64,000 bases of DNA from Tsuneonella rigui. GTDB lineage: Bacteria; Pseudomonadota; Alphaproteobacteria; Sphingomonadales; Sphingomonadaceae. A model generated the notes under the pieces. It was not told where the DNA came from, searched no databases, and saw nothing but the letters and a program-made list of their open reading frames with translations. A program made the position numbers and the translations under genes. The stretch lies in the NCBI RefSeq assembly GCF_003958625.1, contig NZ_RSEL01000018.1:1-64000 (forward strand). The letters are read 5' to 3'. Below, piece by piece: positions 13,999-46,138 of the stretch. Each line of letters opens with the position of its first letter. Position 1 is the first letter of the stretch.

Positions 13999-14100
13999 CG
14001 ACCCCGCCTCCGCGGGGTCGTCCTCGGCGCGCTTCCTCCGCTCCGCTCCGGAGCGCCTGCGGGCGCGCGTTCGCGCTTGCGGTCGGCTGGTCGCCGACCG
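13999..14100 (-). ncRNA. Four-hairpin structured repeat module, copy 1
   Basis: Read on the minus strand: H1 CGGTCGGC-GACCA-GCCGACCG (14100-14080), H2 GCGC-GAAC-GCGC, H3 closed by GGCGC/GCGCC, H4 CGACCCCG-CGGAGG-CGGGGTCG (14020-13999). Stems differ from copies 2 and 3 yet remain paired, and loops are nearly the same. It lies 10 bases past the DUF3035 gene stop. Whether it is transcribed is unknown; it may be a DNA repeat, a terminator or an RNA element. Confidence 0.6.
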
Positions 14101-14140
14101 TGCTCTTGCGAGACCGACCTAGTTTGGCGTCGCGAGAGCA

Positions 14141-14243
14141 CGGTTCGCGACTAGCGAACCGCAAGGCCGACCGGCCGCCCGCAGGTGCCCTGTAGCGAAG
14201 CGGAAGGAACAGCACCGAGGACGAAGGCGCGGAGGCGCCTTCG
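14141..14243 (+). ncRNA. Four-hairpin structured repeat module, copy 2
   Basis: H1 CGGTTCGC-GACTA-GCGAACCG (14141-14161), H2 GGCC-GACC-GGCC (14165-14176), H3 closed by GGTGC/GCACC (14184-14216), H4 CGAAGGCG-CGGAGG-CGCCTTCG (14222-14243). It is arranged back to back with copy 1 across a 40-base spacer whose ends TGCTCT and AGAGCA also pair. It ends five bases from the stop codon of the convergent CorC-like gene. Confidence 0.6.
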
Positions 14244-14248
14244 AAAAA

Positions 14249-15541
14249 CTAAAGGCAAACCGCCAACAGCTTGTCGATCTTGCGCCCATCCATGTCGACC
14301 ACTTCGATCCGCCAGCCCTGGTCGGTGAAGTGCTCACCCTCCTCTGGCAACTTCTTGAGGCTCCACAGGACGTAGCCAGCCGCAGTCGCGAACTCGCGGT
14401 CTTCGGGGAGGTCGATGCACAGGCGATCGGCCAGCTGGTCGACCGGCAACGCGCCCGAGATCAGCAGCGATCCATCGTCGCGCTCGATGATCGTCGGCGC
14501 CTCGCCCAAATCCTGGTCGCTCGCGAAGTTGCCGACGATCGCGGTCAGCAGGTCGACCGGGGTGACGATCCCCTCGAGGTGCCCGTATTCATCGTGCACC
14601 ATCGCCATCGCCACTTCCGCCTGCTGCAGCGTGCGCAGCGCGTCCATCGCGTCGAGCTGGTCGGGGATCACCTCGGGCTTCTTGATCAGCGCGGCGAGAT
14701 CGACCGGCTGGCCGGCGACCATCGTGCGCAGGACTTCGCGCACCTTGACCACTCCCACCACCTTGTCGGGCGAGCCGTCGGCCACCGGCAGCAGCGAGTG
14801 CGGGCTCGCGTCGATGCGGGCGCGCAGGTCGACCTCGGGGCCCTGCAGGTCGAGCCAGTCGAGCTCGTTGCGCGGGGTCATCAGCTCGCGCACCGGGCGC
14901 TCAGCGAGCTTGACCACGCCGGCAAGAATCTGGCTTTGCCCGGCTTCGATCACCCCTGAGTGGGTCGCCTCGGTGAAGATCATGTGCAGCTCTTCGCTGG
15001 TCACGCTGCCCTGCCCCGCGGGCCGCACGCCGAGCAGGCGGATGATCAGCGCCGACGAGGTGTCGAGCAGCCACACTATCGGCGCGGCCACCCTCGCCAG
15101 CATCGCCATCGGGCGTGAGGCCCAAAGCGCGATCGGCATCGCCGCGCGCAAGGCGACCTGCTTGGGCACCAGCTCGCCGATGACCAGGCTGAAGTAGGTG
15201 GTGAGGACGATCACCAGCGCGAACCCGGCTTCCTCGGCGTACTCGGCCGGCACGCCCAGCGCCGCGAGCCGCTCGGCCGCCGGTCCGCCCAGGCTCGAAC
15301 CCGAATAGGCGCCCGAAACGATCGCGACGATGGTGATCCCGGCCTGCACGGTCGACAGGAACTTGCCCGGATCGCCTTGCAGCGCGAGCGCCGCCTGCGC
15401 CGCCTTGCTGCCCTTGTCGGCGGCGGCTTTGAGGCGCGCGGGCTTGGCGGAGACGATCGCCAGCTCGCTCATCGCGAACAGGCCGTTGAGCACGATCAGC
15501 CCGGCGATGATCAGGACGTCGGTCCAGGGAAACGGTGTCAC
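14249..15541 (-). CDS. CNNM/CorC-HlyC family transporter-associated protein
   Basis: A 430-aa membrane protein. The N-terminal DUF21 domain has three or four transmembrane segments (residues ~5-190) with VLNGLFAMSELAIVSAK and IGELVPKQVALR. Two CBS domains follow (~205-330: RELMTPRNELDWLD, MAMVHDEYGHLEGIVTP), then a C-terminal CorC_HlyC domain (~345-430). This family is linked to Mg/Co efflux or tolerance; haemolysin is a historical name. The start is GTG (TPFPWTDVLI). The gene converges with the DUF3035 gene across a repeat-filled gap. Confidence 0.88.
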   Translation of the reverse strand: MTPFPWTDVLIIAGLIVLNGLFAMSELAIVSAKPARLKAAADKGSKAAQAALALQGDPGKFLSTVQAGITIVAIVSGAYSGSSLGGPAAERLAALGVPAEYAEEAGFALVIVLTTYFSLVIGELVPKQVALRAAMPIALWASRPMAMLARVAAPIVWLLDTSSALIIRLLGVRPAGQGSVTSEELHMIFTEATHSGVIEAGQSQILAGVVKLAERPVRELMTPRNELDWLDLQGPEVDLRARIDASPHSLLPVADGSPDKVVGVVKVREVLRTMVAGQPVDLAALIKKPEVIPDQLDAMDALRTLQQAEVAMAMVHDEYGHLEGIVTPVDLLTAIVGNFASDQDLGEAPTIIERDDGSLLISGALPVDQLADRLCIDLPEDREFATAAGYVLWSLKKLPEEGEHFTDQGWRIEVVDMDGRKIDKLLAVCL

Positions 15542-15696
15542 GATTGAGGCGCTAGCACAAAAGCGCCGCGCTGCCAGCGGGAACCCGAGCGATGCGGCCG
15601 CCGTTTACAGGCACAAGGTGCGGGTAGGGCGCGCCGGCCTTTGGCGTGCCGCACGAGCGGGACGCCGCACGTAACGAGAACAAAGGGGACTACCCA

Positions 15697-16380
15697 ATGA
15701 AGACTTCGCGCAAACTCACCGCGGCGCTGGCCGCGGTTTCGCTCGTCGGCGTTTCGGCCTGCGTCACCGATCCCAACACCGGCGAACGCAAGATTTCGCG
15801 CACCGCGATCGGCGGCGTGCTGGGCGCGGGCGGCGGTGCGCTGCTCGGCGGCCTGATCGGCGGACGCACTGCGCGCATCGCGGGCGCGGTCGCGGGCGGC
15901 GCGCTCGGCGGCTATGTCGGCTACCGGATGGACCAGCAGATCAAGGAACTGAAGGACCAGACCGCGGGCTCGGGCATCGACGTCAGCGAAACCGACGGCG
16001 GCCAGGCGATCCTCGTCAACCTGCCCGACGGCGTGACTTTCGCCACCGGCAGCTATTCGATCAACCCGGCCTTCCAGAGCTCGCTCGACCGGGTCGCCGC
16101 CAGCCTGCAGCAGTACCCGAACAGCTTGGTCGACGTGTATGGCTATACCGACACCGTGGGCAGTGCGAGTTCCAACCAGCGCCTGTCCGAACAGCGCGCG
16201 CAGGCGGTCGCGAACTACCTCATCAGCCGCGGCGTCAGCTCGGCGCGTCTGCGCTGGATGGGCTTCGGCGAGACCAGCCTCAAGGTGCAGACCGGCGACA
16301 ACGTCAACGAGCCGATGAACCGCCGGGTCGAAATCAAGATCATCCCGGTGACTCAGGCGGAGGCCAACGCCGCCAGCTAG
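15697..16380 (+). CDS. OmpA-family peptidoglycan-associated lipoprotein
   Basis: A 227-aa lipoprotein. The lipobox is VGVSACVTD (Cys ~22). A Gly-rich region (AIGGVLGAGGGALLGGLIGG, ~37-75) of the YMGG/glycine-zipper type follows, then an OmpA_C domain (~110-220) with VYGYTDTVGS and NQRLSEQRAQAVANYL that binds diaminopimelate in peptidoglycan. The ATG at 15697 is preferred because AAAGGGGA precedes it and it begins the signal peptide. It tethers the envelope to the wall. A terminator follows. Confidence 0.9.
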   Translation: MKTSRKLTAALAAVSLVGVSACVTDPNTGERKISRTAIGGVLGAGGGALLGGLIGGRTARIAGAVAGGALGGYVGYRMDQQIKELKDQTAGSGIDVSETDGGQAILVNLPDGVTFATGSYSINPAFQSSLDRVAASLQQYPNSLVDVYGYTDTVGSASSNQRLSEQRAQAVANYLISRGVSSARLRWMGFGETSLKVQTGDNVNEPMNRRVEIKIIPVTQAEANAAS

Positions 16381-16409
16381 TCTGCGAGACCGTGTGGTCG
16401 CAGCACGGT

Positions 16410-16442
16410 AGGGCCGGCTCCCGTCAAGGGGGTCGGCCCTTT
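16410..16442 (+). terminator. Rho-independent-like terminator after the OmpA lipoprotein gene
   Basis: AGGGCCG (16410-16416) pairs with CGGCCCT (16434-16440), with further inner CCC/GGG pairing and a short TT run. It lies between convergent genes and could serve both. Confidence 0.7.
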
Positions 16443-16451
16443 CCGTTCACA

Positions 16452-17408
16452 CTAGAGCCCGAACCACTGCGCGATGTGGTACGAAGCGCACAAGTTAACG
16501 TCGAGGTTGTAGCCGGTCGCGCTGCCGCACTGCGCCGCGCCGGTGCCCGGATCGACCGGCTGGCCGTGGCCCATGCCGGTGATCGAGAACGTCTCCACCC
16601 GGGCGTTGCCTGATGCATCCTTGTAGACCTTGTGCGGAAAGCCGCCGACGGTGTCGCTGACGTCCGCCGTCTGATCGATCCCGTTGGCGTTGGTCCACTG
16701 CTCCATCGTCTCGTTGAGATTGCCGTAGTTGACCGTCAGGTCGCTCGTGCCGTGCCAGATGGATACGCGCGGATAGGCTCCGCTCCAAGAGAACGCGCCG
16801 CGGACGAGATCGCCCCACTGCGCGGGCGTCTTGGTGACCGTGCCGCCGTTGCACATCAGCGAGGATCCGACAGTCGTGGCGCACTTGTAGGGCACGCCCG
16901 CCAGGGGCGCGCCGGCGGCAAACACGTCGGGATAGGTCGCCAGCATCACGTTGGTCATCGCCGCGCCGGAGCTGAGGCCGGTGACGAAAATGCGGCTGGT
17001 GTCGCTGCCGTGGTGGCTGACCATCCAGTCGACCTGCTGTTTGATCGACAGCGGCTCGCCCGCGCCGCGCTGGAAGTCGCTCTTGACGAAGAAGTTCCAG
17101 CACTTGGAGCTGTTGTTGGCGGCCTGTTGTTGCGGAAACACCAGCGCGACGCCGTACTGATCGGCCCATTTGGTCCAGCCGGTCTCGTCGTCCATGTCGG
17201 CGGCAGACTGGGTGCAACCGTGGATTACCACCACCAGTGGGCGGCCCGCGGCGAGGTTGGCGGGGACGTATTCGAACATCTGAATGTTGCCGGGATTGCT
17301 CCCGAAGCTGGCCACCTGGGTCAGCGTGGCGGCGGCGGCATCGGTGGCGGTCGTCCCGACCATCGCGGCCGCCATCAGGGCAAACGTCTTTAGTCCTCTC
17401 CAGCGCAT
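16452..17408 (-). CDS. Secreted PHB-depolymerase-family esterase
   Basis: A 318-aa alpha/beta hydrolase of the extracellular PHB depolymerase/LpqC type. After a signal peptide (to about ATDAAAA), residues include VVVIHGCTQSAADMDDETGW (oxyanion region), the nucleophile elbow VTGLSSGAAMTNVM near residue 150, and SIWHGTSDLTVNYGN with the acidic residue near 230; the catalytic His is in TGMGHGQPVD near 290. Start chosen at 17408: GAGGAGA lies seven bases upstream, whereas the ATG at 17426 precedes that site. Substrate could be polyhydroxyalkanoate or an aromatic ester. Confidence 0.85.
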   Translation of the reverse strand: MRWRGLKTFALMAAAMVGTTATDAAAATLTQVASFGSNPGNIQMFEYVPANLAAGRPLVVVIHGCTQSAADMDDETGWTKWADQYGVALVFPQQQAANNSSKCWNFFVKSDFQRGAGEPLSIKQQVDWMVSHHGSDTSRIFVTGLSSGAAMTNVMLATYPDVFAAGAPLAGVPYKCATTVGSSLMCNGGTVTKTPAQWGDLVRGAFSWSGAYPRVSIWHGTSDLTVNYGNLNETMEQWTNANGIDQTADVSDTVGGFPHKVYKDASGNARVETFSITGMGHGQPVDPGTGAAQCGSATGYNLDVNLCASYHIAQWFGL

Positions 17409-17436
17409 GACATTCTCCTCACCCATCGTTCTGGTT

Positions 17437-17458
17437 CTTCACTATCACGATAGCGAAG
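17437..17458. promoter_or_regulatory. Inverted repeat upstream of the esterase gene
   Basis: CTTCACTATC and GATAGCGAAG (one mismatch) flank two bases, about 30 bases upstream of the esterase start on the minus strand. The size and position suit a repressor operator. Confidence 0.35.
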
Positions 17459-17565
17459 CGACGAGTGTGACACGAATGTGCGCGAACGCAAGGTGCGAAA
17501 AATGTGTCGAGCAGCGATGGAGAGGAACCGGCTTTCCCGCGCAGCCGTAGCGTAACTTCGACCGG

Positions 17566-18345
17566 CTAACCGGCGATGGCTTTCGCCCTGTCCGCCAACC
17601 GCGTCACCGCCGCATCGTGGATCGCCGGGGCGCTGATCAGCAAGCCGAAGGCGCGGGGATCGCGCTTGTTGTAATTGAGTGGGTGGCCGAAGGCGTCGGT
17701 TACCGCCGCCCCCGCTTCGCGGGCGATAAGCGCGGCGGCGCCGATGTCCCATTCCCAGCCCCACCGCAGCGTGGCGAGGAGATCGGCCTCGCCGCTCGCG
17801 ACCATCGCCGCGCGCAGCGCGATCGAGTTGGGCTTGTCGACCATCACCAGGTCGCGGTCTTCCTTGGGCAGCGAATCGGCGGGGACGCGCGAGCCGGCGA
17901 ACTCGGTGCGCTGCGATGCCTGCAGCTCCTCGCCGTTACGCCACGCTCCCTGGCCGGAGACCCCGCTCCAGTACTCGTCGCGCGCAGGAGCGGCGAGGAA
18001 GCCCATGAGGGGCCGCCGCTCGCTGATGAGGGCGACCGACACCGCCCAACCCGTGCGCCCGCGGATGAAGTCGCGGGTGCCGTCGACCGGGTCGACCAGC
18101 CAGATCAGGCCCTTGTCGAGGCGCGAGGGATCGTCGGCGGTTTCCTCGCTCAGCCAGCCCGCGGCGGGCAGCAGCGCTCCGAGCTCGCGCTTGAGGAAGG
18201 CGTCGACCTCGATATCCGCCGCGCACACCGGGTTGCCGGGCGCTTTCTCCCACGCCTCCAGCGCGTGGCCGCCGCCGGGCCACATGCCGAACGCGATCTC
18301 GCCGGCTTGCCGGACGATCGCTTCGAGGCGTTTTGCATCAATCAC
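17566..18345 (-). CDS. Inositol monophosphatase family protein, CysQ-like 3'(2'),5'-bisphosphate nucleotidase
   Basis: A 259-aa metal-dependent phosphatase. Metal-binding motifs are visible: [10 protein letters not shown] (~residue 65), [15 protein letters not shown] (~85-99) and [17 protein letters not shown] (~208). This arrangement fits CysQ, which removes 3'-phosphate from PAP made by sulfate assimilation, but IMPase activity cannot be excluded. The GTG at 18345 ([14 protein letters not shown]) is chosen; the open frame continues upstream across the sucC start but has no family similarity there. It is divergent from sucC, with 100 bases between starts. Confidence 0.82.
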
Positions 18346-18445
18346 AGCTTGGGCATTGGCGAGGCACAGTGTGCTTTTCAAGCGCGCCGAACCGTGCTTA
18401 GGCCCCGCGCAAACTCCCCCAGCACAAGAAAGCCCGACGGCTCCC

Positions 18446-19645
<1,200 letters not shown>

Positions 19646-19650
19646 GCGAG

Positions 19651-19666
19651 TTGACGCTTACGTAAA
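19651..19666 (+). promoter_or_regulatory. Possible LiuR-type (MerR family) operator upstream of etfB
   Basis: TTGACG and CGTAAA are near-perfect inverted halves (TTKACG/CGTMAA) separated by CTTA, six bases after the sucC stop and 44 before etfB. The architecture matches what I recall of LiuR sites governing branched-chain amino acid and fatty acid catabolism, whose regulons can include etf genes. It also contains a TTGACG that could act as a -35. Confidence 0.35.
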
Positions 19667-19709
19667 GGTTATCTAGAGGCGCACGCACGAACGAAGGAGC
19701 GCGATTGCC

Positions 19710-20456
19710 ATGAAAATCCTCGTCCCCGTCAAGCGGGTGATCGATTACAACGTGAAGCCGCGGGTCAAGGCCGACGGCACCGGGGTCGATCTCGCCAACG
19801 TCAAGATGAGCATGAACCCGTTCGACGAGATCGCGGTCGAGGAAGCCCTGCGCCTGCGCGAGAAGGGCGCGGCGACCGAGGTGATCGCGGTGTCGGTCGG
19901 CCCGGCCAAGGCGACCGAGACGCTGCGCACCGCGCTCGCGATGGGCGCCGACCGCGCGATCCTGGTCCAGACCGATGACGAGGTCGAGCCGCTGGCGGTC
20001 GCCAAGATCCTCAAGGCTATCGCCGACGCCGAAGCGCCCGGCCTGGTCATCCTCGGCAAGCAGGCGATCGATGACGATTCGAACCAGACCGGCCAGATGC
20101 TCGCCGCGCTAATGGGCCGACCGCAGGGCACTTTCGCCAACGAAGTCACCGTCGAGGGCGACAGCGTCACCGTGAAGCGCGAGATCGACGGCGGGCTCGA
20201 GACGGTGAAGCTATCGCTCCCCGCGATCGTCACCACCGACCTGCGCCTCAACGAGCCGCGCTACGCCTCGCTGCCCAACATCATGAAGGCCAAGTCCAAG
20301 CCGCTCGATACCAAGAGCCCGGCCGACTACGGCGTCGACACCGCCCCGCGTTTGAAGACCGTCAAGGTCAACGAGCCGCCGGTGCGCCAGGCCGGCATCA
20401 AGGTCGCCGATGTCGACGAGCTAGTCGGCAAGCTCAAAGCCCTCGGCATCGCCTGA
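19710..20456 (+). CDS. etfB: Electron transfer flavoprotein beta subunit
   Basis: Together with EtfA it accepts electrons from acyl-CoA and other dehydrogenases and passes them to ETF-ubiquinone oxidoreductase. The 248-aa protein has the family start [15 protein letters not shown], the AMP-binding [17 protein letters not shown] near residue 115, and the recognition segment [19 protein letters not shown] near 190. A GAAGGAG site precedes the ATG. It is 25 bases from etfA. Confidence 0.96.
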
Positions 20457-20481
20457 GCCCTGATCGGAAAGGATTAGATAG

Positions 20482-21411
20482 ATGAAGACTCTCGTTCTGG
20501 TCGAGCACGACAACAGCAGCGTCAAGGACGCCACCCTCAGCACGGTGACCGCCGCTTCCAAGCTCGGCGAAGTGCACCTGCTGGTCGCCGGCAAGGGCTG
20601 CGCGGGCGTGGCCGATGCCGCGGCCAAGATCGCGGGCGTGGGCAAGGTCCACCTCGCCGACGACGCCGCCTACGAGCACCAGCTGGCCGAGAACCTCGCG
20701 CCGCTAATCGTCGACCTGATGGGCCACCACGACGCGTTCCTCGCGCCCGCCACCACCACCGGCAAGAACGTCGCCCCGCGGGTCGCCGCGCTGCTCGACG
20801 TGATGCAGGTGTCGGAGATCATCGGCATCGAGGGCGACAAGACCTTCGTCCGCCCGATCTATGCCGGCAACGCCATCGCCACGGTCGAATCGTCCGATCC
20901 CAAGCTCGTCATCACAGTGCGCGGCACCGCGTTCGACAAGGCGGCGAGCGAGGGCGGCGCGGGCACCGTCGAGGCCGTCAGCGGCGCGGGCGATGCCGGG
21001 CTGTCGACCTTCCAGGGCAGCGAGCTCGCCAAGAGCGAGCGCCCCGAGCTGACCAGCGCCAAGGTCATCGTCTCGGGCGGCCGCGCGCTCAAGGACAGCG
21101 AGACGTTCAAGGAGCTGATCTTCCCGCTGGCCGACAAGCTCAACGCCGGCGTCGGTGCCAGCCGCGCGGCGGTCGACGCGGGCTACGTGCCCAACGACTT
21201 CCAGGTCGGCCAGACCGGCAAGATCGTCGCGCCGGAAGTCTACATCGCAGTCGGCATCTCGGGCGCGATCCAGCACTTGGCCGGCATGAAGGACTCCAAG
21301 ACCATCATCGCCATCAACAAGGACGAGGACGCCCCGATCTTCCAGGTTGCGGACATCGGCCTGGTCGGCGACTTGTTCAAGATCGTGCCGGAGCTGACCG
21401 GGAAGCTCTGA
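20482..21411 (+). CDS. etfA: Electron transfer flavoprotein alpha subunit
   Basis: FAD-binding partner of EtfB. The 309-aa sequence has an N-terminal adenine-nucleotide-hydrolase-like domain ([17 protein letters not shown]). The C-terminal FAD domain shows [38 protein letters not shown] and [24 protein letters not shown] near residues 190-285. It is complete and cotranscribed with etfB. Confidence 0.96.
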
Positions 21412-21454
21412 TTGCAATCGCTAATCCGCTCACTAAAGTGGGAGCGGGGGCGGT

Positions 21455-22369
21455 ATGATCGGTCGCTTAAGTCTTTTATTGCTGATGTCGTTAGGTGCGG
21501 CCGACGTCGCCTTTGCGAAAGACCGGCCAAGCACGGTTGTCTTACAGCCGAGTTCCAATTGGTACCTCGACTATGCCGATGGATATTGTCGCTTGGCGCG
21601 GCAGTTCGGCGTTGGCGACCATAAGACCGTCTTCTACCTCGAACAGTATGAGCCGGACAATCGGTTCACAGTGCTAGTAGCCGGCCCGGATTTCGTTGCG
21701 GAGAAAGTTCACCGCGGAAAATTGCGCTTTGGCGTCGACGGCGCGGAAGCGCTTGGCGAGCGGCTGAAGGCCAAACTAATGGACGGTTACGGTGAAGGCG
21801 TGTCCATCGGGGGAATGGGACTGCTCCCCAACGCGAACCCACTTCCAGGAAAGCGCATTCCTGCTGGTTCGACTGACTATCAAGCCCCGCCAAGTCCGAC
21901 CTCGCTCGCGCCCGCCGACGTTGCGCATATTTCCTATTTCGAGTTGCTTGAAGGGGATCGCCCCGTCGCCAGGCTGGAACTCGGCCGGATGAGTGAGCCG
22001 GTCAAAGCAATGAACGCCTGTACGGAGGAACTGCTCACACATTGGGGGATCGACGTCGTGGCGAACCGCACGCGGAAGCGCGCTCCAGAGCCCACGACGA
22101 GCCCGGCCACCTGGATCTCTTACTCTGATTACCCGAAGGAGCTCTTACGCGAAGGAAGAGAGGGTACAGTCTACTTTCGGTTCGATGTGGACGAGACCGG
22201 CAAGGCCACTGGTTGCCATGTCCAACAATCAACACGGCCAGATGGTTTCGACGAAGCAGTGTGCAAGAGCCTAATGCGGCGGGCTCGATTCGAACCGGCA
22301 CTCGGCGCCGATGGGAAACCGATTGCCTCATACTGGCGGAGCTCGGTGAGCTTCCAGATTCCGAGCTAG
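21455..22369 (+). CDS. Secreted protein with a C-terminal TonB-like domain
   Basis: A 304-aa protein with a cleavable signal peptide (to about DVAFAK). A middle region of ~190 residues has no recognised domain but several aromatic strands ([18 protein letters not shown]). The C-terminal ~85 residues ([53 protein letters not shown]) match the TonB C-terminal fold. It lacks a TM anchor and proline-rich spacer, so it is probably not a canonical energy transducer. Codon use is AT-richer than neighbours. Its stop overlaps the convergent GNAT gene by four bases. Confidence 0.75.
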
Positions 22370-27604: not shown

Positions 27605-27621
27605 GGGTCGTATCCCGGCGC

Positions 27622-34150: not shown

Positions 34151-34266
34151 CGCGTTCCCTCCAGATCGCGGCGCGACCCGCTTGGGGACGCAAGGTGCCA
34201 GAGAGGGCGCGCTAGCGCAACGACCGTTTACACCGGTCATTTACCGCGAAGAAACGATGGGGGCGG

Positions 34267-34608: not shown

Positions 34609-34801
34609 GGAAGGTCCTTTGATCGGTGCATCAGTGACATAATACAGCGGGGCGCGTCAAGGTTCCCGGTAACAGAAGGTTCAGGCGGTTACGGGTGAAA
34701 CAAGTGCTTCACATGGGCGAAGCAGCCGTTAGGGTGCGCGCCATTCCGGCCCCTTCGCTTGCGAACGGGGCCGTCAAAACAATTTCGAGGGAATGGATCG
34801 C

Positions 34802-36433: not shown

Positions 36434-36446
36434 CCAAACCGATCAG

Positions 36447-36476
36447 GGCGCGGGGGCAATGGCTCCCGCGCCTTTT
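36447..36476 (+). terminator. Rho-independent terminator after the peptide transporter gene
   Basis: GGCGCGGG (36447-36454) pairs with CCCGCGCC (36465-36472) and is followed directly by TTTT. It separates the transporter from the amidohydrolase operon. Confidence 0.85.
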
Positions 36477-36488
36477 CTTCATGGGGGC

Positions 36489-37864
<1,376 letters not shown>

Positions 37865-37868
<4 letters not shown>

Positions 37869-39274
37869 GCGCCTCTCCCACCAAGAGCCTGCGCCCGTTC
37901 GGCGCCATCGGTCTCGCCCTCGGCCTCGCCGGAGCGTTCGTCGGTTACAAAGCGAGTGCGCAGGACTTCGCGATCACCAACGCGACCGTTGCCACCGGCG
38001 ACGGCTCCGCACCGATCCAGGGCGCAACCGTCGTCGTGCGTGGCGGAAAGGTGGTCGCGGCCGGCTCCGGCGTTGCCGTACCTGCGGACGTGCAGACGAT
38101 CGACGGCAGCGGCAAGTGGGTCACGCCCGGGCTGTTCGCCGCGATGACCGCGCTCGGCCTCTACGATGCGGAGGGGATCGAGGAATCGGACGATTCCGGC
38201 GCCCGCAATTCGCCCTTCGGCGCCGCGCTCGACGTGACGCCCGCGCTCAATCCGGTCTCGCAGCACGTGGCGGTGGCGCGCGACGGCGGCATCACCCGGG
38301 CGAGCGTGTTCTCGCGTCCGGCAAGCTCGATCTTCGGCGGACAAGGCGCGGTAGTCGATCTCGGGGCCGACCCGAACATGGTCGTGCGCCCGCGCGCGTT
38401 CCAGCTCGTGGCGCTCGGCGAATACGGCGCACAACTCGCCGGCGGCAGCCGGGTGAGCGCGCACGCGGTGCTCCGCAACGCGCTGCGTGAGGCTCGCCAA
38501 TACAGCTCCGACAGCCGCATTCCCGGCGGTAGCGGGCCGCGCCAAGTTTCGACCGGCGACGACATCCCGGTCGATACGCGCCTGATCGACAACAGCGCCG
38601 AACGCGATGACGTGCTCCTGACGCGCTTCGACGCCGCGGCGTTGATCCCGGTCGTGAACGGCCAGCAGCCGCTCTACGTCGCGGTCGAGCGCGCCGCCGA
38701 CATTCGCGCGGTGCTCGCGCTACGAAGCGAGTTCCCCAAGCTCAAGCTCGTGCTGGTCGGAGTCAGTGAGGGCTGGCGCGTGGCAAGCGAGATCGCCGCC
38801 GCCGGCGTGCCGGTTATCGCCGACCCAGTCGACGACCTGCCCTCGCGTTTCGAGCAGCTCGCCGCGACGCAGAGCAACGTCGGCCGCATGGTTGCCGCCG
38901 GGGTTAAGGTCGCGCTCGGCGGACTCGCGGGCTCGACCGGCGACCAGCCAAAGAACCTTGCGCAATATGCCGGCAACCTGGTCGCCCTAACCAAGGTGCC
39001 AGGAGCGTCCGGCCTTTCATGGGGCCAGGCGTTCGCAGCGATCTCATCCATCCCGGCGGAAATCTCCGGTCAGGGCGGCCGCGCGGGCGTGCTCAAGGCC
39101 GGCGCTGCAGGTGACGTTGTGATCTGGGACGGCGACCCGCTCGAACTATCGAGCGCACCCGAGCGGGTGTTCATCGATGGGGTCGAGCAGCCCAAGGACG
39201 ACCACCAATCCCGGCTCAAGGATCGCTACCGCGACCTCGACGACCGCGACCAGCCCAAGGCGTTCGACTGGTGA
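37865..39274 (+). CDS. Amidohydrolase-like protein lacking the HxH metal motif
   Basis: A 469-aa exported paralogue of the preceding gene. It has a signal sequence to about YKASAQ, the same N-terminal sandwich (FAITNATVATGDG) and C-terminal sandwich (GAAGDVVIWDGDPLELSS). However, after GKWVTPGLF the expected His-x-His is replaced by AAMTALGLYDAEG, so the binuclear site is lost or remodelled. A similar two-gene arrangement is familiar from other proteobacteria. It may be a partner subunit or pseudoenzyme. Translationally coupled on both sides. Confidence 0.82.
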
Positions 39275-39777
39275 AGTGGCGCATCGCAGGCGAGGGTGGA
39301 ACGACCCTGGCGCTGGGTGCCGCGCTGATCGCGGCCGCCGCGGCCATGGCCCAGCCGGTCGAGACTCCGCCCGACCACAGCCAGGACATCGTCTGGATGA
39401 ACGCCCAGCAGGCCGCCTTGGCGGAGCGGGCGGCGCAGCCGGGCTGGCAGACCGTCGAGGGCGGCACGCTGTGGCGCCGCGTGGCGGGCGATGGCTCGGG
39501 TAAGCATCCGACTCCCGCCGACACGGTGACCGTGCATTACACCGGCACGTTCGTCGAGGGCGGGGTGTTCGACACCTCGGAAGGCGGCGAGCCGGCGACC
39601 TTCCCGCTCGGGCGGCTGATACCGGCGTGGACCAAGGCGATTCCGCAGATGGGCGTGGGCGATACGATCGAAATCGCCGCCCCGGCGAGCGAGGCCTACG
39701 GCACCAAGGGCAAGGGCCCGATCCCCGGCGGCGCGACGCTGCTGTTCACCGTGCGGCTGCTCAAGATCGGCAACTGA
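39271..39777 (+). CDS. FKBP-type peptidyl-prolyl cis-trans isomerase
   Basis: A 168-aa exported prolyl isomerase. It has an N-terminal signal-like segment (TTLALGAALIAAAAAMA) and a ~50-residue linker. The FKBP domain (~75-168) has VTVHYTGTFVEGGVFDTS, FPLGRLIPAWTKAIPQMGVG and IPGGATLLFTVRLLKI. It starts at GTG 39271, overlapping the amidohydrolase by four bases, so it may assist folding of the exported enzymes encoded upstream. Confidence 0.9.
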   Translation: MKWRIAGEGGTTLALGAALIAAAAAMAQPVETPPDHSQDIVWMNAQQAALAERAAQPGWQTVEGGTLWRRVAGDGSGKHPTPADTVTVHYTGTFVEGGVFDTSEGGEPATFPLGRLIPAWTKAIPQMGVGDTIEIAAPASEAYGTKGKGPIPGGATLLFTVRLLKIGN

Positions 39778-39826
39778 AGGGACAGCAGGCCGCGCCGGAT
39801 TGCAATCGCCGGCAAGTCTGATACCC

Positions 39827-40527
39827 ATGTTGACACCGTTCACATGGGGAGATGCGGTGTGGACCCTGCCCTTGCTGACCGCCGCGAGTATCGCCTTCGT
39901 CGGCACGCACTTCGCGCTGTCGCATCCGCTGCGCGCGCCGATCGTCGCGCGGATCGGCGAGAAGGGGTTCCTGCCGCTCTATTGGCTCGTCGCGTTCGCT
40001 ACGCTCGGCTGGATGGTTCTCGCGTTCCGCGCCGCCCCACCGCTCGACCTCCCTGGTTCGGGCGAGATCGGCTGGATCGCCGCGACCGTCGTCACCCTGC
40101 CCGCGCTGCTGCTGTTTCTCGGTAGCTTGCGCGGCAACCCTGCCATCCCCGGCCCCGCTGCGCCAAAGCCCATCACCCGCGCGCCGACCGGCGTGTTCGC
40201 CGTCACCCGCCACCCGATGATGTGGGGCTTTGCGCTCTGGGCGCTCAGCCACGTCATCCTGTGGTGGAGCTGGCGCACGGTCATCGTTGGCGCGACGATC
40301 CTGTTCCTCGCCCTCGTCGGCGCGCACCTGCAGACCGCAAGAAGGCAGCGCTGCATGGCGAGAACTGGGCCGGATGGGCAACTACGACGAGCTACTGGCC
40401 GCGCTGGGGCCGGCTGCTCGGTGCGGGCGCCGTGCTTTGGACGATAGCGATTGCATTGTGGCTTGCGATCACATGGGCGCATGCGCCATCGGCAGGCGTG
40501 CCGGCAGGCCTGTGGCGGTGGTTATGA
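39827..40527 (+). pseudogene. NnrU-family membrane protein gene with a frameshift
   Basis: The first frame (39827 to ~40335) encodes a multi-TM NnrU-like protein: FVGTHFALSHPLRAPIV, then TRHPMMWGFALWALSHVILWW. Continuing in that frame gives nonsense, but the +1-related frame from about 40335 to 40527 gives the expected C terminus: DRKKAALHGENWAGW, TTSYWPRWGRLLGAG and a final TM helix. Restoring one base (G in CAG-ACCGCAAG near 40335) would join the halves into about 233 aa. It is either a real recent mutation or a sequencing error. Confidence 0.8.
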
Positions 40528-40539
40528 CGCGGATTTCGT

Positions 40540-41028
40540 TCAGCCTACCAATCCAGGGAAAACGTTGAGCGGTAGGCCGAGCGCCACTTTGCGCATGATG
40601 TCATCCGCCGGATCGCCCAGCTCGACGCCAGAAAGCGCATGATCGCGGAGAAGATCTCCGAACGCCTGGGCTACGAGGACTAGACCGTAGGGATCGCGCT
40701 TAAAAATCGGCGCCCCCTCGTCGAAACTGAGGACATTGAGCGCGAAATAGGAATGCCGTCCGATCGGATGAAATGGCAGAAATTCAGCGAGACCGGCGCA
40801 GATGCCGGCCAACGCGTCCTTTGCCCTCTCCGAAACGACAGGCGCCATCACCATCCAGATAACGAAATCGGCCGGCTTATAGCTGGTGCCGATCAACTTC
40901 GCGGGTGGGATCTGCCAGCCTGACGCCATGGGCTGGCCCACGAAATGATCGTGGAAATAGCGCAGGTCGTGTGGGATAAAGGACGGACGCCGCTTCCCAA
41001 GGCAGACAAGTTCGTATGGCGGTGTCAT
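40540..41028 (-). CDS. Small protein, possibly of the Imm11/MXAN_0049 immunity-like group
   Basis: A 162-aa soluble protein with no signal peptide. The segment APVVSERAKDALAGICAGLAEFLPFHP followed by SYFALNVLSFDEGAP (each shown shortened: VVSERAKDAL, EFLPFHPIG, YFALNVLSF) resembles the pattern of Imm11/DUF1629 proteins, some of which neutralise toxins. No toxin gene is adjacent. It has more A/T at third positions than flanking genes, so recent acquisition is plausible. Identification is tentative. Confidence 0.45.
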   Translation of the reverse strand: MTPPYELVCLGKRRPSFIPHDLRYFHDHFVGQPMASGWQIPPAKLIGTSYKPADFVIWMVMAPVVSERAKDALAGICAGLAEFLPFHPIGRHSYFALNVLSFDEGAPIFKRDPYGLVLVAQAFGDLLRDHALSGVELGDPADDIMRKVALGLPLNVFPGLVG

Positions 41029-41058
41029 CGAGACCGGCAGGACGGCTCACCCATCCTT

Positions 41059-42981
41059 TCAGGCCCGCGCCTCTTCCACCCCCGCGCTGTTGTGGCGCAG
41101 CGCCTTGAGTACCGTGTCGATGATGTGCGGGGCGTTGAGGCCGGCTTCGTCGTATTGCTTCGCCGGGTCGTCGTGGTCCTGGAACACGTCGGGCAGGCGC
41201 ATGGTGCGGATTTTCAGGCCCGCATCGAGCAGGCCCTCGTCGCTGGCATGCGTCAGGACATGCGCGCCGAGGCCGCCGATGGCGGCTTCCTCGACGGTCA
41301 CCACTACCTCATGGGTGCGCATCAGGCGGTCGATCAACGCGGTGTCGAGCGGCTTGGCGAAGCGCAGGTCGGCGACGGTGGTCGACAGGCCCTTGGCTTC
41401 GAGCGCATCCGCCGCCTTGAGCGCCTCGGCAAGGCGGGTACCGAGCGACAGCAGCGCCACCTTGGTCCCTTCGCGAACCACCCGGCCCTTGCCGATTTCG
41501 AGCAGTTGCGGCGTCTCGGGCAGCGCCACCCCGGTGCCGTTGCCGCGCGGATAGCGGAAGGCGATCGGGCCGGCGTCGTACTCGGCGGCGGTATAGGTCA
41601 TGTGGACCAGCTCGGCCTCGTCCGCCGCGGCCATCACCACCATGTTGGGCAGAGTCGTAAGGTAGGTCACATCGAACGAGCCGGCGTGCGTCGCCCCGTC
41701 CGCCCCCACCAGCCCCGCGCGGTCGATCGCGAAGCGGACCGGCAGGTTCTGGATCGCGACGTCGTGTACAACCTGGTCGAAGGCACGCTGCAAGAAGGTC
41801 GAATAGATCGCGCAGAACGGCCGCATGCCCTGCGCCGCGAGCCCGGCGGCGAAGGTCACCGCGTGCTGCTCGGCAATGCCCACGTCGAAGCTGCGCTCGG
41901 GGTGCGCTTTGGCGAAACGGTCCACCCCGGTGCCGCTAGGCATCGCCGCGGTGATCGCGCAGATGCGGTCGTCGGTTTCGGCGAGCTTCGCCAGCGTATC
42001 CCCGAACACGTTCTGATAAGCGGGCGGGCCCCCGGCGCTTTTCTTCTGTTCGCCGGTGATGACGTCGAACTTCTGCACCCCATGGTATTTGTCGGCGCTG
42101 TTCTCCGCCGGGGCGTAGCCCTTGCCCTTCTTGGTCACCACGTGGACCAGGATCGGCCCCTGCTCGCTGTCGCGCACGTTCTCCAGCACCGGGATCAGGT
42201 GGTCGAGGTTATGCCCGTCGATCGGACCGACGTAGTAGAAGCCGAGCTCCTCGAACAGCGTGCCCCCGGTGACCATCCCGCGGGTGAATTCCTCGGCCTT
42301 CTCGAGCCCGTGGTTCAGACGCCGGCTGAGCTTGGCCGAAAGCCGCTTGGCGAGGCTGCGCAGCCCGAGGTACTCGCTGCTCGACACCATTCGCGCCAGA
42401 TAGGCGGAGAGCCCGCCCACCGGCGGCGCGATCGACATGTCGTTGTCGTTGAGGATCACGACCAGCCGGTTGCCCGCGGCCTCGGCGTTGTTCATCGCCT
42501 CGTAGGCCATGCCGGCGCTCATCGCGCCGTCGCCGATCACCGCGATGCCCTTGCCGGGCTGGCCCTTCAATTTGTTGGCCACCGCGAAGCCGAGCGCGGC
42601 GCTGATCGAGGTCGACGAGTGCGCGGCGCCGAACGGATCGTACTCGCTCTCGCTGCGCTTGGTGAAGCCCGAGAGGCCGCCGCCTTGGCGCAGGGTGCGG
42701 ATGCGGTCGCGGCGGCCAGTCAGGATCTTGTGCGGATAGGCCTGGTGGCCGACGTCCCACACCAGCTTGTCGGTCGGGGTATCGAACACGTAGTGGATCG
42801 CTACGGTCAGCTCGACCACGCCGAGGCCCGAACCCAAGTGCCCGCCGGTCGAGCCGACCGCGCTGATCATCTCCGAGCGCAGTTCGTCGGCGAGCTGGCG
42901 CAGGTCTTCCGGCTTGAGCTTGCGGAGGTCTTCAGGAGTATCGACGGTGTCGAGCAGAGGCGTCACGGGGCGCGAAGTCAT
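41059..42981 (-). CDS. dxs: 1-deoxy-D-xylulose-5-phosphate synthase
   Basis: Thiamine-diphosphate enzyme condensing pyruvate with glyceraldehyde 3-phosphate, the first step of the MEP isoprenoid pathway. The 640-aa protein shows [18 protein letters not shown] with the catalytic His, the ThDP motif [18 protein letters not shown] (GDG..., about residue 152), [15 protein letters not shown], and the transketolase-like C-terminal half with [15 protein letters not shown] and [14 protein letters not shown]. Complete. It supplies precursors for carotenoids and quinones. Confidence 0.97.
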
Positions 42982-43065
42982 GCGTCCCGTCCTACACGCC
43001 CACGCGATTGCTGTCGATGAAAGGTCTCTGATGAAACCATGAGGGTTCGGTGAAATCGCCGCGCG

Positions 43066-43524
43066 TCAGTGGCATTGGGCGCAGAGACCGCGGATCTCGA
43101 TTACCGGGCGCTCGGGCTTGAAGTCGGCCTTTTCGGCGAGGCCGCGCACCGACTTGGTCAGCGCGTCGTCGTCGATGTGGGTGGCTTCGCCGCATTCGTC
43201 GCATACCAGGAAGATGCAGTCGTGCAGGCAGCCAGGATGGCTGTTGGCGAGGTAGGCGTTGCTGCTCTCGACCCGGAGCGCGAGGTTGTTGGCCACGAAC
43301 ACATCGAGGATGCGGTAGATCGAGTTGGGCGCGATGCGCTTGCCGCGCTTGGCCGAGACCTCGTCGGCGATGTCGTAGGCGCTCGCGGGCGAGGCGTGGG
43401 TGGCGAGCGCGTCGAACACGTCGGCGCGCAGCTCGGTCCACTGCTCGCCTGCGGCGATCAACGCGTCCCGCGCTGCGGGGGCAAGGCTGTCGCCCGAGTG
43501 CTCGTGATGATGGTGGCCCGACAT
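43066..43524 (-). CDS. Fur-family regulator, Zur-like
   Basis: A 152-aa metalloregulator. A His-rich start (SGHHHHEHSGD) is followed by a winged helix (VFDALATHASPASAYDIADE, PNSIYRILDVFVANNLA). The C-terminal dimerisation domain has HDCIFLVCDECGEATHID and ends GLCAQCH, two CxxC structural zinc pairs. The HDCIFLVCDECG block is closer to Zur than to Fur. Start 43524 opens the His-rich N terminus. It lies 44 bases downstream of msrA. Zinc uptake genes are the expected targets but none are in view. Confidence 0.85.
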   Translation of the reverse strand: MSGHHHHEHSGDSLAPAARDALIAAGEQWTELRADVFDALATHASPASAYDIADEVSAKRGKRIAPNSIYRILDVFVANNLALRVESSNAYLANSHPGCLHDCIFLVCDECGEATHIDDDALTKSVRGLAEKADFKPERPVIEIRGLCAQCH

Positions 43525-43568
43525 GGCGCGCAATGTAGTGCCTGGCGCGCCTCCGCGCCAGTGCAGGG

Positions 43569-44237
43569 TCAGTTGCGGACGAAGGCGGTCTGATAGACGC
43601 CGGGGTACATGCCCTTGAGCGCGGCGACCTTGGGCGCGTCCCACCGGATGATGTAGCCGTGCTTCGGATTGTTGAGCGCGAAATCCTGGTGATACGCTTC
43701 GGCCGGGTAGAACGCGCCGCTTTCGATGGTGGTGACGATCGGACGGCTCCACAGCTTGGCGGCGGACAGCTGCGCGATGTAGGCCTTGGCGACCGCGGTC
43801 TGCTCGGCGCTCTGCGGGAACAGCGCGGTGCGGTATTGGGTGCCGCTGTCGGGGCCTTGGCGGTTCTTGAGCGTGGGATCGGCGATCACCGAGAAGTAGA
43901 TGCGCAGCAACTGGTCGTAGCGAATCACGGCGGGATCGTAGGTCACCTTGACCGCTTCGGCATGGCCGGTGCCGCCGCCCGACACGGTGTCGTAGCTGGC
44001 GTTGGCCTTGCTGCCGCCGGCGAACCCGCTGACTGCGCTCTTCACGCCCTTCACGTGGCTGAAAACCGCCTCGACGCCCCAGAAGCAGCCGCCGGCAAAG
44101 ACCGCGGTCTTGAGGCCCTTTTCGGCCGCCTCGCGCTTCGCCATCGGCGCGTGGACGGTGCCCTCGCCCGCGATCGCGGCGCTTTGGCATCCGGCCAGCG
44201 CCAGTGCGGCGGCGGCGAGGAGCGCCGCGCGCTTCAC
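43569..44237 (-). CDS. msrA: Peptide methionine sulfoxide reductase A, lipoprotein-type
   Basis: Reduces methionine-S-sulfoxide in proteins. The 222-aa precursor has a lipoprotein signal (ALALAGCQSA), then the catalytic AVFAGGCFWGVEAVFSHVKG near residue 55 and TGHAEAVKVTYDP, YFSVIADPTLKNRQGPD and GTQYRTALFP. It is thus likely periplasmic or outer-membrane anchored rather than cytoplasmic. The GTG start at 44237 overlaps the stop of the upstream 48-aa gene (GTGA), and begins the signal sequence KRAALLAAA. Confidence 0.93.
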   Translation of the reverse strand: MKRAALLAAAALALAGCQSAAIAGEGTVHAPMAKREAAEKGLKTAVFAGGCFWGVEAVFSHVKGVKSAVSGFAGGSKANASYDTVSGGGTGHAEAVKVTYDPAVIRYDQLLRIYFSVIADPTLKNRQGPDSGTQYRTALFPQSAEQTAVAKAYIAQLSAAKLWSRPIVTTIESGAFYPAEAYHQDFALNNPKHGYIIRWDAPKVAALKGMYPGVYQTAFVRN

Positions 44238-44380
44238 CGGGTGGCGACCACGGGCGCGGCGTGCGCCTGGCTCACCAGGCCCGCCTCGCCCTGCGGTGCC
44301 ATCTGCCACACCGCGATCGCGGTGCCGATGGCAAAGCCGATGCCGAGGTTGCGGGTGAGATCGGACGAGAACAGGCGCAT
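44234..44380 (-). CDS. 48-aa single-pass membrane protein coupled to msrA
   Basis: Sequence RLFSSDLTRNLGIGFAIG with one hydrophobic stretch (IGFAIGTAIAVWQMA) and a short periplasmic tail rich in Ala. AAGGAA lies about seven bases before the ATG at 44380; the longer frame from 44419 lacks a ribosome site. Its TGA overlaps the msrA GTG, so translation is probably coupled. I do not recognise a family; it could be a leader that sets MsrA expression or a small membrane partner. Confidence 0.6.
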   Translation of the reverse strand: MRLFSSDLTRNLGIGFAIGTAIAVWQMAPQGEAGLVSQAHAAPVVATR

Positions 44381-44463
44381 TTCAGATTCCTTTGGCTGCG
44401 CGATATGGGTAGCCGTCAAGGAATTGCGAGGCCCTTAACCCGGCCGTTGGGGGAGGTTCATGG

Positions 44464-46032
44464 ATGCTCGACGCCGCGATCATCGGGGCGGGCCATAATG
44501 GGCTGGTGTGCGCGTTCTACCTCGCCCGGGCGGGGCAAAAGGTGCGGCTGTACGAGGCGCGCGGAGTGCCCGGCGGGGCGGCGGTGACCGAGGAGTTTGC
44601 GCCGGGTTTCCGCAACTCGACCGCGAGTTACACCGTCAGCCTGCTCCAGCCCAAGGTCATCGCCGACATGGGCTTGGTTCAGCGGGGCTACCGGGTGATC
44701 GAGCGGCCGTTCGCCAACTTCCTTCCACTGGAGGGCGACTATCTGCTGGTCGGTGGCGGCTTGGCGGCGACGCAAGCCCAGTTTGCACGGTTTTCAAGCA
44801 AAGATGCGGAGGCGCTCCCCGACTACTACGCGATGCTCGAAACGGTGGCTGAGGTGCTGCGCGACCTCGCGCTCAAGGTACCGCCTGACATCAACGGCGG
44901 CCCGCGGGCGCTGCTCGATGCGGTCATGCAATCGCGCAGGGTCGCCAAGCTGCCGCTCGCCGCCAAGCGCGACGTGCTGGCGCTGTTCACCCGCTCGGCG
45001 CGCGAGGTGCTGGAGCAGCGGTTCGAGAGCGAGCCGGTCAAGGCCGCGTTCGGGTTCGATGCCTGCGTCGGCAATTACGCCAGCCCCGACGCGCCGGGCA
45101 GCGCCTATGTGCTCCTCCATCATGTGTTCGGCGAGGTGAACGGCAAGAAGGGCGCATGGGGCCATGTGCCGGGCGGAATGGGCACGGTCACCAGGCTGAT
45201 GGCCGAGGCGGTGCGCGAGGCGGGCGGCGAGATCGTCACCGACGCGCCGGTTGAGCGCGTGCTGGTCGAGGACGGAAAGGCCGTCGGCCTGCGCCTGGCG
45301 AGCGGCGAGGAGGTGCGGGCGAAGCGCGTCATCGCCAACCTCGGGCCCAAGCCGCTGTTCGATCGCCTCGTGCCAAGCGAGGCGGTGACACACGACTTCG
45401 CGCGGGCGATGGCGGGATACCAGAGCGGATCGGGTTCCTTGCGGATAAACGTCGCGCTGTCCGGATTGCCGCGCTTCACCCATGCGCCGGCGGGCGAGGA
45501 ACATCTCAAGGCCGGCATCATCATCGCCCCAAGCCTCGCTTACATGGACCGCGCCTGGCGCGACGCGACCGAGCAAGGCTTCAGCCGCGAGCCGATTGTC
45601 GAGATGCTGATCCCGAGCCTCGTCGATGACAGCCTCGCGCCACCGGGCCAACACGTCGCGAGCCTGTTCTGCCAGCACGTCGATCCGGACCTGCCGGAGG
45701 ATCGCGAGGATGACGCGGTCGAAGCGGTATTCGACACGATCGAGGCGCATGCCCCTGGATTCCGTGCACTGGTTTTGCACAAGCAAGTCCACACCCCCCG
45801 CGCGCTCGAAGCCAAATTCGGCCTGTGGCGCGGCGATATCTTCCACGGCCGCATGAGCCTCGACCAGCTCTGGGCCGCGCGGCCGGCGCTGGGTGCAGGG
45901 AGCTACCGGACCCCGTTGCCGGGCTTGTGGCTATGCGGCGCGGGCGCCCATCCCGGCGGCGGAGTTACCGGCGCGCCCGGCCACAACTGCGCCCACGCGA
46001 TCCTGCGCGAAGGGAAGTGGTGGCGCCGTTAG
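44464..46032 (+). CDS. Phytoene-dehydrogenase-like FAD oxidoreductase
   Basis: A 522-aa NAD(P)/FAD-dependent oxidoreductase of the CrtI/PYROXD2 type. The dinucleotide motif [21 protein letters not shown] is at residues 4-22 (given here as [10 protein letters not shown]). It is followed by [15 protein letters not shown], the family GG motif, and ends with [20 protein letters not shown], the C-terminal FAD contact. PYROXD2-like members are not proven carotenoid desaturases, and no crt genes are adjacent. A structured repeat begins four bases after the stop. Confidence 0.83.
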
Positions 46033-46035
46033 AGA

Positions 46036-46138
46036 CGGTTCGCGACTAGCGAGCCGCAAGGGCGACCGCCCGCCCGCAGGCGCACCGGAGCGAAGCGTAG
46101 GAAACCGCGCCGAGGACGAGCGCGCGGAGGCGCGCTCG
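46036..46138 (+). ncRNA. Four-hairpin structured repeat module, copy 3
   Basis: H1 CGGTTCGC-GACTA-GCGAGCCG (46036-46056), H2 GGGC-GACC-GCCC (46060-46071), H3 closed by GGCGC/GCGCC (46079-46111), H4 CGAGCGCG-CGGAGG-CGCGCTCG (46117-46138), then TCGAAAA. It occupies the whole gap between two convergent stops. Compared with copy 2, H2, H3 and H4 stems change on both sides and keep pairing. Confidence 0.62.

What the first reader, a model, noticed from the sequence alone, without database searches (positions are those of the whole stretch)
13999..46138. A four-hairpin, covarying repeat module in convergent 3' regions
Three copies (13999-14100 on the minus strand, 14141-14243, 46036-46138), each ~103 nt, fold as four consecutive hairpins. 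H4 stems are CGACCCCG/CGGGGTCG, CGAAGGCG/CGCCTTCG and CGAGCGCG/CGCGCTCG, all around the same loop CGGAGG. H2 stems are GCGC/GCGC, GGCC/GGCC and GGGC/GCCC around GAAC or GACC. H1 stems CGGTCGGC/GCCGACCG, CGGTTCGC/GCGAACCG and CGGTTCGC/GCGAGCCG surround GACCA or GACTA. Sequence changes on both sides of the stem keep pairing, the usual signature of selection on structure. Every copy fills a gap between convergent genes and starts or ends within 4-11 bases of a stop codon. I know of no named family with this layout.
Basis: partly seen in the sequence, partly recalled or inferred. Interest (0 to 1): 0.82.

Follow-up and report, generated by a model that had tools for sequence, protein, structure and literature searches.

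The report
Hairpin repeats behind bacterial stop codons
These three sequences belong to a family of short DNA repeats, seen here in one group of bacteria, that sit just behind the stop codons of particular genes and keep their hairpin shape although the paired letters keep changing; they resemble the known bacterial REP repeats.

Summary
The three ~105-nt copies fold as four hairpins. Across 109 copies not used to build the model, 97.3% of stem cells pair, with 735 two-sided changes against 214 when shuffled. Rfam gives only tRNAs in the window.

The reading changes. Copies 1 and 2 are one head-to-head dimer. Convergent placement is no rule: of 262 copies with context, 103 are convergent, 145 tandem, 14 divergent. 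The rule is that hairpin H4 faces a stop codon, 113 of 188 such copies within 15 nt. The same genes carry copies in different genera (151 site pairs against 3.65 expected), yet whole orthologous copies are no more alike than other copies in the same genome.

The covariation is not clearly RNA-like: G-U and A-C cells are equal in a sequence-only alignment, and only DNA folding parameters prefer one strand. Near-identical copies lie at different sites; no RAYT-type protein was found in the 19 copy-bearing genomes.

Best reading: a modular REP/BIME-like, non-autonomous palindromic DNA element of Erythrobacteraceae that puts a hairpin behind stop codons. Function is inferred.

The parts
13998..14101 (-). 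Element copy 1 (H1-H4; H4 end 9 nt from the stop of the DUF3035 gene)
   Evidence: R1 98.1 bits; distance; fold z -3.0
14102..14139 (.). Imperfectly palindromic spacer between the two head-to-head copies
   Evidence: Pairs with itself within the dimer fold
14140..14244 (+). Element copy 2, head-to-head with copy 1; H4 end 4 nt from the TAG stop of the CNNM gene
   Evidence: R1 123.8 bits; distance; fold z -3.5
13990..14250 (.). Whole dimer: two outer H4 hairpins and one ~200-nt inverted repeat between them
   Evidence: Fold -192.1 kcal/mol, z -12.07
46035..46139 (+). Element copy 3, single; H4 end 7 nt from the TGA stop of purH, H1 end 2 nt from the stop of the oxidoreductase gene
   Evidence: R1 111.2 bits; distances; fold z -2.0
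13578..13988 (+). DUF3035 gene, H4-side neighbour of copy 1
   Evidence: PF11233, 2e-17
14249..15541 (-). CNNM/CorC-type membrane protein gene, H4-side neighbour of copy 2
   Evidence: PF01595 and PF03471
44464..46032 (+). FAD/NAD oxidoreductase gene resembling carotenoid enzymes, H1-side neighbour of copy 3
   Evidence: PF01593; CrtO/CrtI-type NCBIfam matches all below cut-off
46147..47742 (-). purH, H4-side neighbour of copy 3
   Evidence: TIGR00355 above cut-off

Best explanation
The copies are members of a non-coding, modular, palindromic DNA repeat family of Erythrobacteraceae that behaves like REP/BIME/REPIN elements. One unit is about 105-125 bp (105 modelled plus a short motif before H1 and a tail after H4): H1, GCAAG, H2, CCCGCAG, an exchangeable H3, GAGGACG, H4, then an A-rich tail AAAACAA. 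Two units often stand head to head as a ~250-bp dimer with the H4 ends outside. Shown: most H4 ends that face a stop codon lie within 15 nt of it; the same orthologous 3' ends carry copies in several genera; stems change as complementary pairs while loops and linkers persist; near-identical copies occur at different sites in one genome; orthologous sites range from full to reduced to empty. Inferred: the element spreads or is converted as a DNA hairpin by an enzyme not identified here that is not a RAYT; template switching or gene conversion between copies keeps the arms complementary. Also inferred: once placed, the transcript has a 9-bp G+C-rich hairpin (the complement of H4) typically 4-8 nt after the stop codon behind a U-rich linker, which acts as a stop-proximal REP does in E. 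coli (barrier to 3' exonucleases and read-through, possible stalling of terminating ribosomes).
For: Placement: H4 end within 15 nt of a facing stop in 113 of 188 copies, H1 end in 18 of 163 (270 unique copies, 262 with context). Neighbouring copies: 22 of 25 multi-copy clusters head to head, none tail to tail; 20 of 25 in the named loci, 1 tail to tail (this set overlaps the first a little, since G024 and one G026 contig are in both). No copy lies wholly inside a called gene. Orthologous addresses: 151 cross-genome site pairs against 3.65 expected, 92 of 148 sites in 29 shared families. Stem turnover: mean core identity 0.714 orthologous, 0.715 same genome other site, 0.689 other genome other site (cores of 85-120 nt). 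Spread: 57 same-genome pairs at least 90% identical. DNA-level pairing: GU 167, AC 167; DNA-parameter strand preference 212 of 257. Functional analogy: passages of PMC12306157 state that E. [quoted passage not shown]
Against: No transposase or target-site duplication was found. Of the 14 most alike same-genome pairs printed, 12 are from G026 and one is from a local array (L085), so recent spread is shown mainly in one genome. In H4 alone GU exceeds AC about twofold (52 to 26 cells; 14 to 6 in distinct inner stems), which leaves room for RNA selection. Against simple within-genome homogenisation, H1 arms are more alike between orthologous copies (0.640) than within a genome (0.531). Conserved addresses are odd for a purely selfish repeat. 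27 of 83 lone tandem copies point H4 at a start, not a stop. No expression data were available. On the gene-sense strand copy 3 folds no better than shuffles (z 0.16).
Confidence: 0.7

Rival explanations
1. A structured cis-acting RNA in 3' regions: the four hairpins are selected as RNA, for 3'-end protection or protein binding, and inherited vertically at particular genes.
For: Very strong covariation; orthologous positions across genera; tight spacing to the stop codon; conserved loops (GGAG 107, GGAT 71 of the 178 anchored H4, where the anchor itself asks for GGAG or GGAT); GU above AC in H4 (52 to 26); orthologous H1 arms somewhat more alike than others.
Against: GU does not exceed AC over the whole element; no strand preference with RNA parameters (133 of 257); at single convergent copies such as copy 3 the two neighbouring genes would read opposite strands; presence and absence vary between close relatives.
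Confidence: 0.2
2. A transcription terminator module that ends convergent transcripts.
For: Position just behind stop codons; enrichment in convergent gaps (103 of 262 copies against 26 of 325 copy-free gaps of 100 nt or more).
Against: The terminator scan reports no hairpin-plus-T-tract site inside the elements of the window on either strand; the T-rich stretch lies before, not after, the H4 complement on the gene-sense strand; orthologous sites in relatives are often empty.
Confidence: 0.1
3. The covariation is purely mutational: quasipalindrome template switching and gene conversion keep the arms alike, with no selection on structure at all.
For: Few mismatched intermediates: of 86 distinct H4 stems 39 are perfect and 39 have one non-Watson-Crick pair, against 0.94 perfect with shuffled arms; GU = AC; H4 arms more alike within a genome (0.736) than between orthologous copies (0.686); the mechanism is proposed for RNA hairpins in PMC8794818 (abstract and passages).
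Against: Loops and linkers are conserved in sequence, which template switching alone does not explain; positions behind stop codons are conserved; H1 arms show the opposite pattern to H4 arms (0.531 within a genome, 0.640 orthologous).
Confidence: 0.3

Closest known systems
CGTC- and GTAG-tagged REPs (Di Nocera et al. 2013, PMC3733652; parts 1-4 of 8 and passages read)
   Same: Palindromic, mostly intergenic, downstream of genes and often within 20 bp of the 3' end, between convergent and unidirectional genes, frequent head-to-head dimers, stems with complementary alternatives; CGTC REPs known in sphingomonads and without a dedicated transposase.
   Different: REPs there are 20-40 bp with one hairpin and a GTAG or CGTC tag; CGTC stems almost invariably start with AT pairs and most end in a CCA tail. 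Here four hairpins, ~105 bp, an A-rich tail and no such tag.
REPINs and BIMEs (PMC3116915 and PMC2817692, seen only as search listings with abstract starts; details recalled)
   Same: Head-to-head palindrome pairs acting as one copying unit.
   Different: REPINs are recalled as moved by RAYTs; no RAYT-type protein was found in the 19 copy-bearing genomes.
E. coli stop-proximal REPs that stall ribosomes (Liang et al. 2015, known here through passages of PMC12306157 and PMC5082802; the paper itself not seen)
   Same: Hairpin within 15 nt of a stop codon.
   Different: Unrelated sequence; no functional test here.
Caulobacter CIR repeats, Brucella Bru-RS, Sinorhizobium RIME/mosaic palindromes (recalled, no call)
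   Same: Roughly 100-bp palindromic intergenic repeats in alphaproteobacteria.
   Different: CIR elements are recalled as tied to GANTC sites; here GANTC follows H4 in 34 of 178 copies, at least 22 of them from one genome.

Membership tests
REP (GTAG/CGTC superfamilies) | 20-40 bp single palindrome | tested here: not met
   ~105-nt unit with four hairpins
REP (GTAG/CGTC superfamilies) | Unpaired GTAG or CGTC tag at one end; CGTC stems start with AT pairs, tail mostly CCA | tested here: not met
   H4 stem mostly starts CG and the tail is AAAACAA; a CGTC string follows H4 on the opposite strand but on the wrong side of the stem (own reading)
REP (GTAG/CGTC superfamilies) | Located downstream of genes, between convergent or unidirectional genes | tested here: met
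   103 convergent, 145 tandem, 14 divergent of 262
REP (GTAG/CGTC superfamilies) | Head-to-head dimers common | tested here: met
   22 of 25 clusters and 20 of 25 neighbouring pairs
RAYT-mobilised REP/REPIN | RAYT (Y1_Tnp, PF01797) in the genome | tested here: not met
   PF01797 in 10 of 60 genomes at E <= 0.001, none of the 19 with the repeat
MITE | Terminal inverted repeats and target-site duplication | tested here: inconclusive
   Tails at both H4 ends of a dimer form inverted TTTGTTT/AAACAAA-like ends; filled and empty orthologous sites could not be aligned precisely enough to see a duplication
Intrinsic terminator | G+C-rich hairpin followed by a T-tract | tested here: not met
   No such site within the elements of the window
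Known Rfam RNA family | Score above a family's gathering threshold | tested here: not met
   Only three tRNAs in the window; lowest E-value 2.4 in a permissive scan of 13900-14300
Caulobacter CIR repeats | GANTC in an inverted repeat (recalled) | tested here: not met
   34 of 178 copies have GANTC within 16 nt after H4, at least 22 of them in G026

The most novel reading that the evidence does not exclude
A non-RAYT, single-stranded-DNA hairpin mobility or conversion system repeatedly writes exchangeable hairpin modules at fixed addresses directly behind the stop codons of the same orthologous genes across Erythrobacteraceae, sometimes supplying the TAG stop itself. The stems are replaced as complementary pairs while the address and loops persist, giving the cell a swappable 3'-end device.
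Probability: 0.2. Interest if true: 0.8.

Novelty: new variant of a known kind. Interest (0 to 1): 0.52.

Why it matters
The family gives many natural replicates of paired stem change at fixed genomic addresses, a direct way to ask whether covariation reflects selection on RNA, DNA hairpin processing or template switching. It warns that strong covariation does not by itself mean a functional RNA. It also offers a test, outside enterobacteria, of whether stop-proximal hairpins tune translation or mRNA ends, and it points to an unidentified way of spreading for REP-like DNA in genomes where no RAYT was found.

Tried and rejected
Rfam at gathering scores (whole window) and with permissive thresholds (13900-14300 only): nothing. 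Plasmids and phages, blastn distant mode with copy 2: no match. RAYT hypothesis: rejected for lack of PF01797 in copy-bearing genomes. CcrM-site (GANTC) element: rejected as a general feature, because the enrichment (34 of 178 in the first 16 nt, shuffled mean 4.7) comes mostly from one genome. Terminator: no T-tract site. A transposase flanked by copies: the 536 flanking proteins fall into 216 clusters; among the cluster representatives printed I recognised no transposase, but I did not scan them against a family library. Evidence weaker than hoped: the tRNA control (33 tRNAs, 42 GU and 0 AC of 708 cells) is biased, since ARAGORN chiefly accepts standard pairs; pair counts on model-fitted alignments (GU 88, AC 33 of 3649 cells; the 116 best-scoring of 167 rows of A4 and A5, the rest dropped) lean to GU, which is why I also counted on a sequence-only MAFFT alignment of the 183 cores of 95-110 nt, itself noisy (504 'other' cells of 5544, half of them in H1: there GU 43, AC 75). 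The anchored H4 counts use only the 178 of 268 distinct cores that fit the anchor. The background of gap types (26 convergent of 325) comes from the same loci by my own simple gene caller and underestimates convergent gaps, since a convergent gap cannot follow another; counting all copy-free gaps in the named loci gives 70 of 458. The family and class censuses scored at most 13 candidates per genome, so copy counts there are lower bounds. R1 was run on 80 of the 117 stretches found.
Full report
1. The observation. The three copies are present at the stated coordinates. A covariance model (R1, 105 positions, 33 pairs) was built from the seven own-genome copies (in that alignment L003 lacks part of H1 and L006 lacks H1 and part of H2). 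On these seven, 98.6% of 211 cells pair and 17 of 33 pairs change on both sides; none of 500 shuffles reaches this, and slid partners give 29-42% paired. The structure was derived from these sequences, so I repeated the count on 109 matches in the 80 listed loci of named genomes, not used for the model: 97.3% of 3391 cells paired, 735 two-sided changes against 214 shuffled, score 0.511 against 0.118. That alignment was fitted to the model and leans to it; the margin is far larger than I would expect from such a lean.

2. Anatomy. H3 comes in several versions between the same linkers, and a second type keeps H1 and H2 but has another H3/H4 (own reading). Copies 1 and 2 of the window are one head-to-head dimer; 13990-14250 folds to -192.1 kcal/mol, z -12.07.

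3. Where copies sit. R1 finds the family in 19 of 60 relatives at E <= 0.001: 19 of 36 genomes of the window's family and 0 of 24 others. A wider draw gives 62 of 298 genomes of that family at E <= 1e-6 and 3 of 289 genomes drawn from the class, all three of the same family. Plasmid and phage collections gave no match. Of 270 unique copies, 262 have context: 145 tandem, 103 convergent, 14 divergent, none wholly inside a called gene. Copy-free gaps of 100 nt or more in the same loci are 26 convergent and 121 divergent of 325.

4. The stop-codon rule. H4 faces a stop in 188 copies and a start in 74. 113 of 188 H4 ends lie within 15 nt of the stop, against 18 of 163 H1 ends; peaks are at 8 nt (23) and 4 nt (15). 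Lone tandem copies point H4 at the upstream gene's stop in 56 of 83. The commonest linkers read stop-TTTGTTTT at 8 nt and stop-TTTT at 4 nt. At 4 or 8 nt the stop is TAG in 24 of 38, against 218 of 838 called genes, so the element may sometimes bring the TAG. Neighbouring copies are head to head in 22 of 25 clusters and 20 of 25 pairs.

5. Same addresses, different stems. I deduplicated 148 sites in 49 genomes where H4 lies -10 to 60 nt from a facing stop. There are 151 cross-genome pairs with homologous genes; random placement over 2800 shared genes would give 3.65. 46 pairs are below 75% protein identity, 7 of these below 40% and possibly not orthologous. Close relatives share sites by descent, so pairs are not independent, but seven genomes, most of them from different genera, carry a copy 5-8 nt behind the same LytTR-type response regulator gene (domain assignment for the G025 copy). 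At these addresses whole copies are not recognisably the same: orthologous cores average 0.714 identity, other sites of the same genome 0.715, other sites of other genomes 0.689. The arms disagree: H4 arms are more alike within a genome (0.736) than between orthologues (0.686), H1 arms the reverse (0.531 and 0.640). At the regulator site I read 29 relatives by eye (30 loci were returned for 49 genomes with a match, one was clipped): 4 full, 2 reduced, 2 of the second type, 2 more distant, the rest empty or with other repeats, including a CGTC-type REP in G024. At purH, 2 full, 1 reduced and 1 of the second type in the 30 genomes read. At the CNNM/DUF3035 gap in 11 genomes of the genus: dimers in G000, G002 and G009, partial in G006, a remnant in G010.

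6. Spread. 57 same-genome pairs of copies are at least 90% identical. Of the 14 printed, 12 are from G026, one from G019 and one from an array in G014. In most of these the shared stretch ends at the A-rich tail or up to about ten bases past it. On the other side it mostly runs towards or into the partner unit; in one printed pair (L147, L150) it spans the whole head-to-head dimer from a TTTGTT end, while others begin inside the spacer or partner or reach the edge of the 150-nt flank that I had extracted. No RAYT-type protein (PF01797) was found in any of the 19 copy-bearing genomes. The mobilising enzyme is unknown.

7. RNA or DNA? In a sequence-only alignment of 183 copies, cells are 4706 Watson-Crick, 167 GU, 167 AC, 504 other; by helix GU and AC are 43 and 75 (H1), 5 and 6 (H2), 67 and 60 (H3), 52 and 26 (H4). 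In anchored distinct H4 stems GU is 25 and AC 15 of 774, or 14 and 6 of 568 for the inner eight pairs; neither ratio departs clearly from 1 (p about 0.15 and 0.12). 33 tRNAs gave 42 GU and 0 AC, a biased control. Copies are related, so these are indications, not tests. GNA triloops, recalled as unusually stable in DNA, are common apices on that strand (GCA 46, GAA 31, GGA 6, GTA 5 of 245 triloops). I read this as pairing maintained mainly at the DNA level.

8. How it may work. The class (REP/BIME-like modular DNA repeat) is well supported. The mechanism is inferred: a DNA hairpin copied or converted between sites, with arms kept complementary by template switching (proposed for hairpins in PMC8794818, abstract and passages) or by selection. 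In the mRNA of the H4-side gene a 9-bp hairpin starts typically 4-8 nt after the stop codon; passages of PMC12306157 and PMC5082802 report that E. coli REPs within 15 nt of a stop codon stall ribosomes, and the latter adds exonuclease protection and termination. By analogy, these are the functions I would test first.

9. Verdict. What would surprise a specialist is the combination of shared orthologous stop-codon addresses with extensive turnover of the stems.

Noticed in passing
window 12635-12740: An in-frame REP-like inverted dimer (45-nt arms) lies inside the ileS reading frame (gene name by own reading). The motif CCGGACTTGATCCGG recurs as inverted pairs at 7075/7131, 9929/9987 and 54271/54330 (8 matches, 0.2 expected). 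PMC3733652 mentions REPs in tRNA synthetases of 'E. lithoralis'.
   Followed up: partly
window 47749-47831: What looks like a CGTC-type REP pair (CGTCATTGCGAG and a two-mismatch inverted partner) lies between purH and the next gene; the motif count in the window as a whole is no more than chance.
   Followed up: partly
G026 loci, e.g. L152, L155, L157, L160: In this genome (its contig C10 has the length of a named uncultured Altererythrobacter MAG contig) 22 of 31 anchored copies have GANTC, recalled as the CcrM site, within 16 nt after H4, often as AAAACAAGGACTC.
   Followed up: partly
L085 (G014) 1918-2538: A local array of four direct copies about 155 nt apart plus one inverted copy, scoring 37-41.5 bits with R1.
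   Followed up: no
L181, L338, L340 and others: A second element type with similar H1/H2 but another H3/H4 block, often with GAGCTTATGCGAGGA and CCGGCG(C/T)TTGAGG, occupies some of the same gene ends.
   Followed up: no
stop codons 4 or 8 nt from H4: TAG in 24 of 38, against 218 of 838 called genes, as if the element tail sometimes supplies the stop codon.
   Followed up: partly
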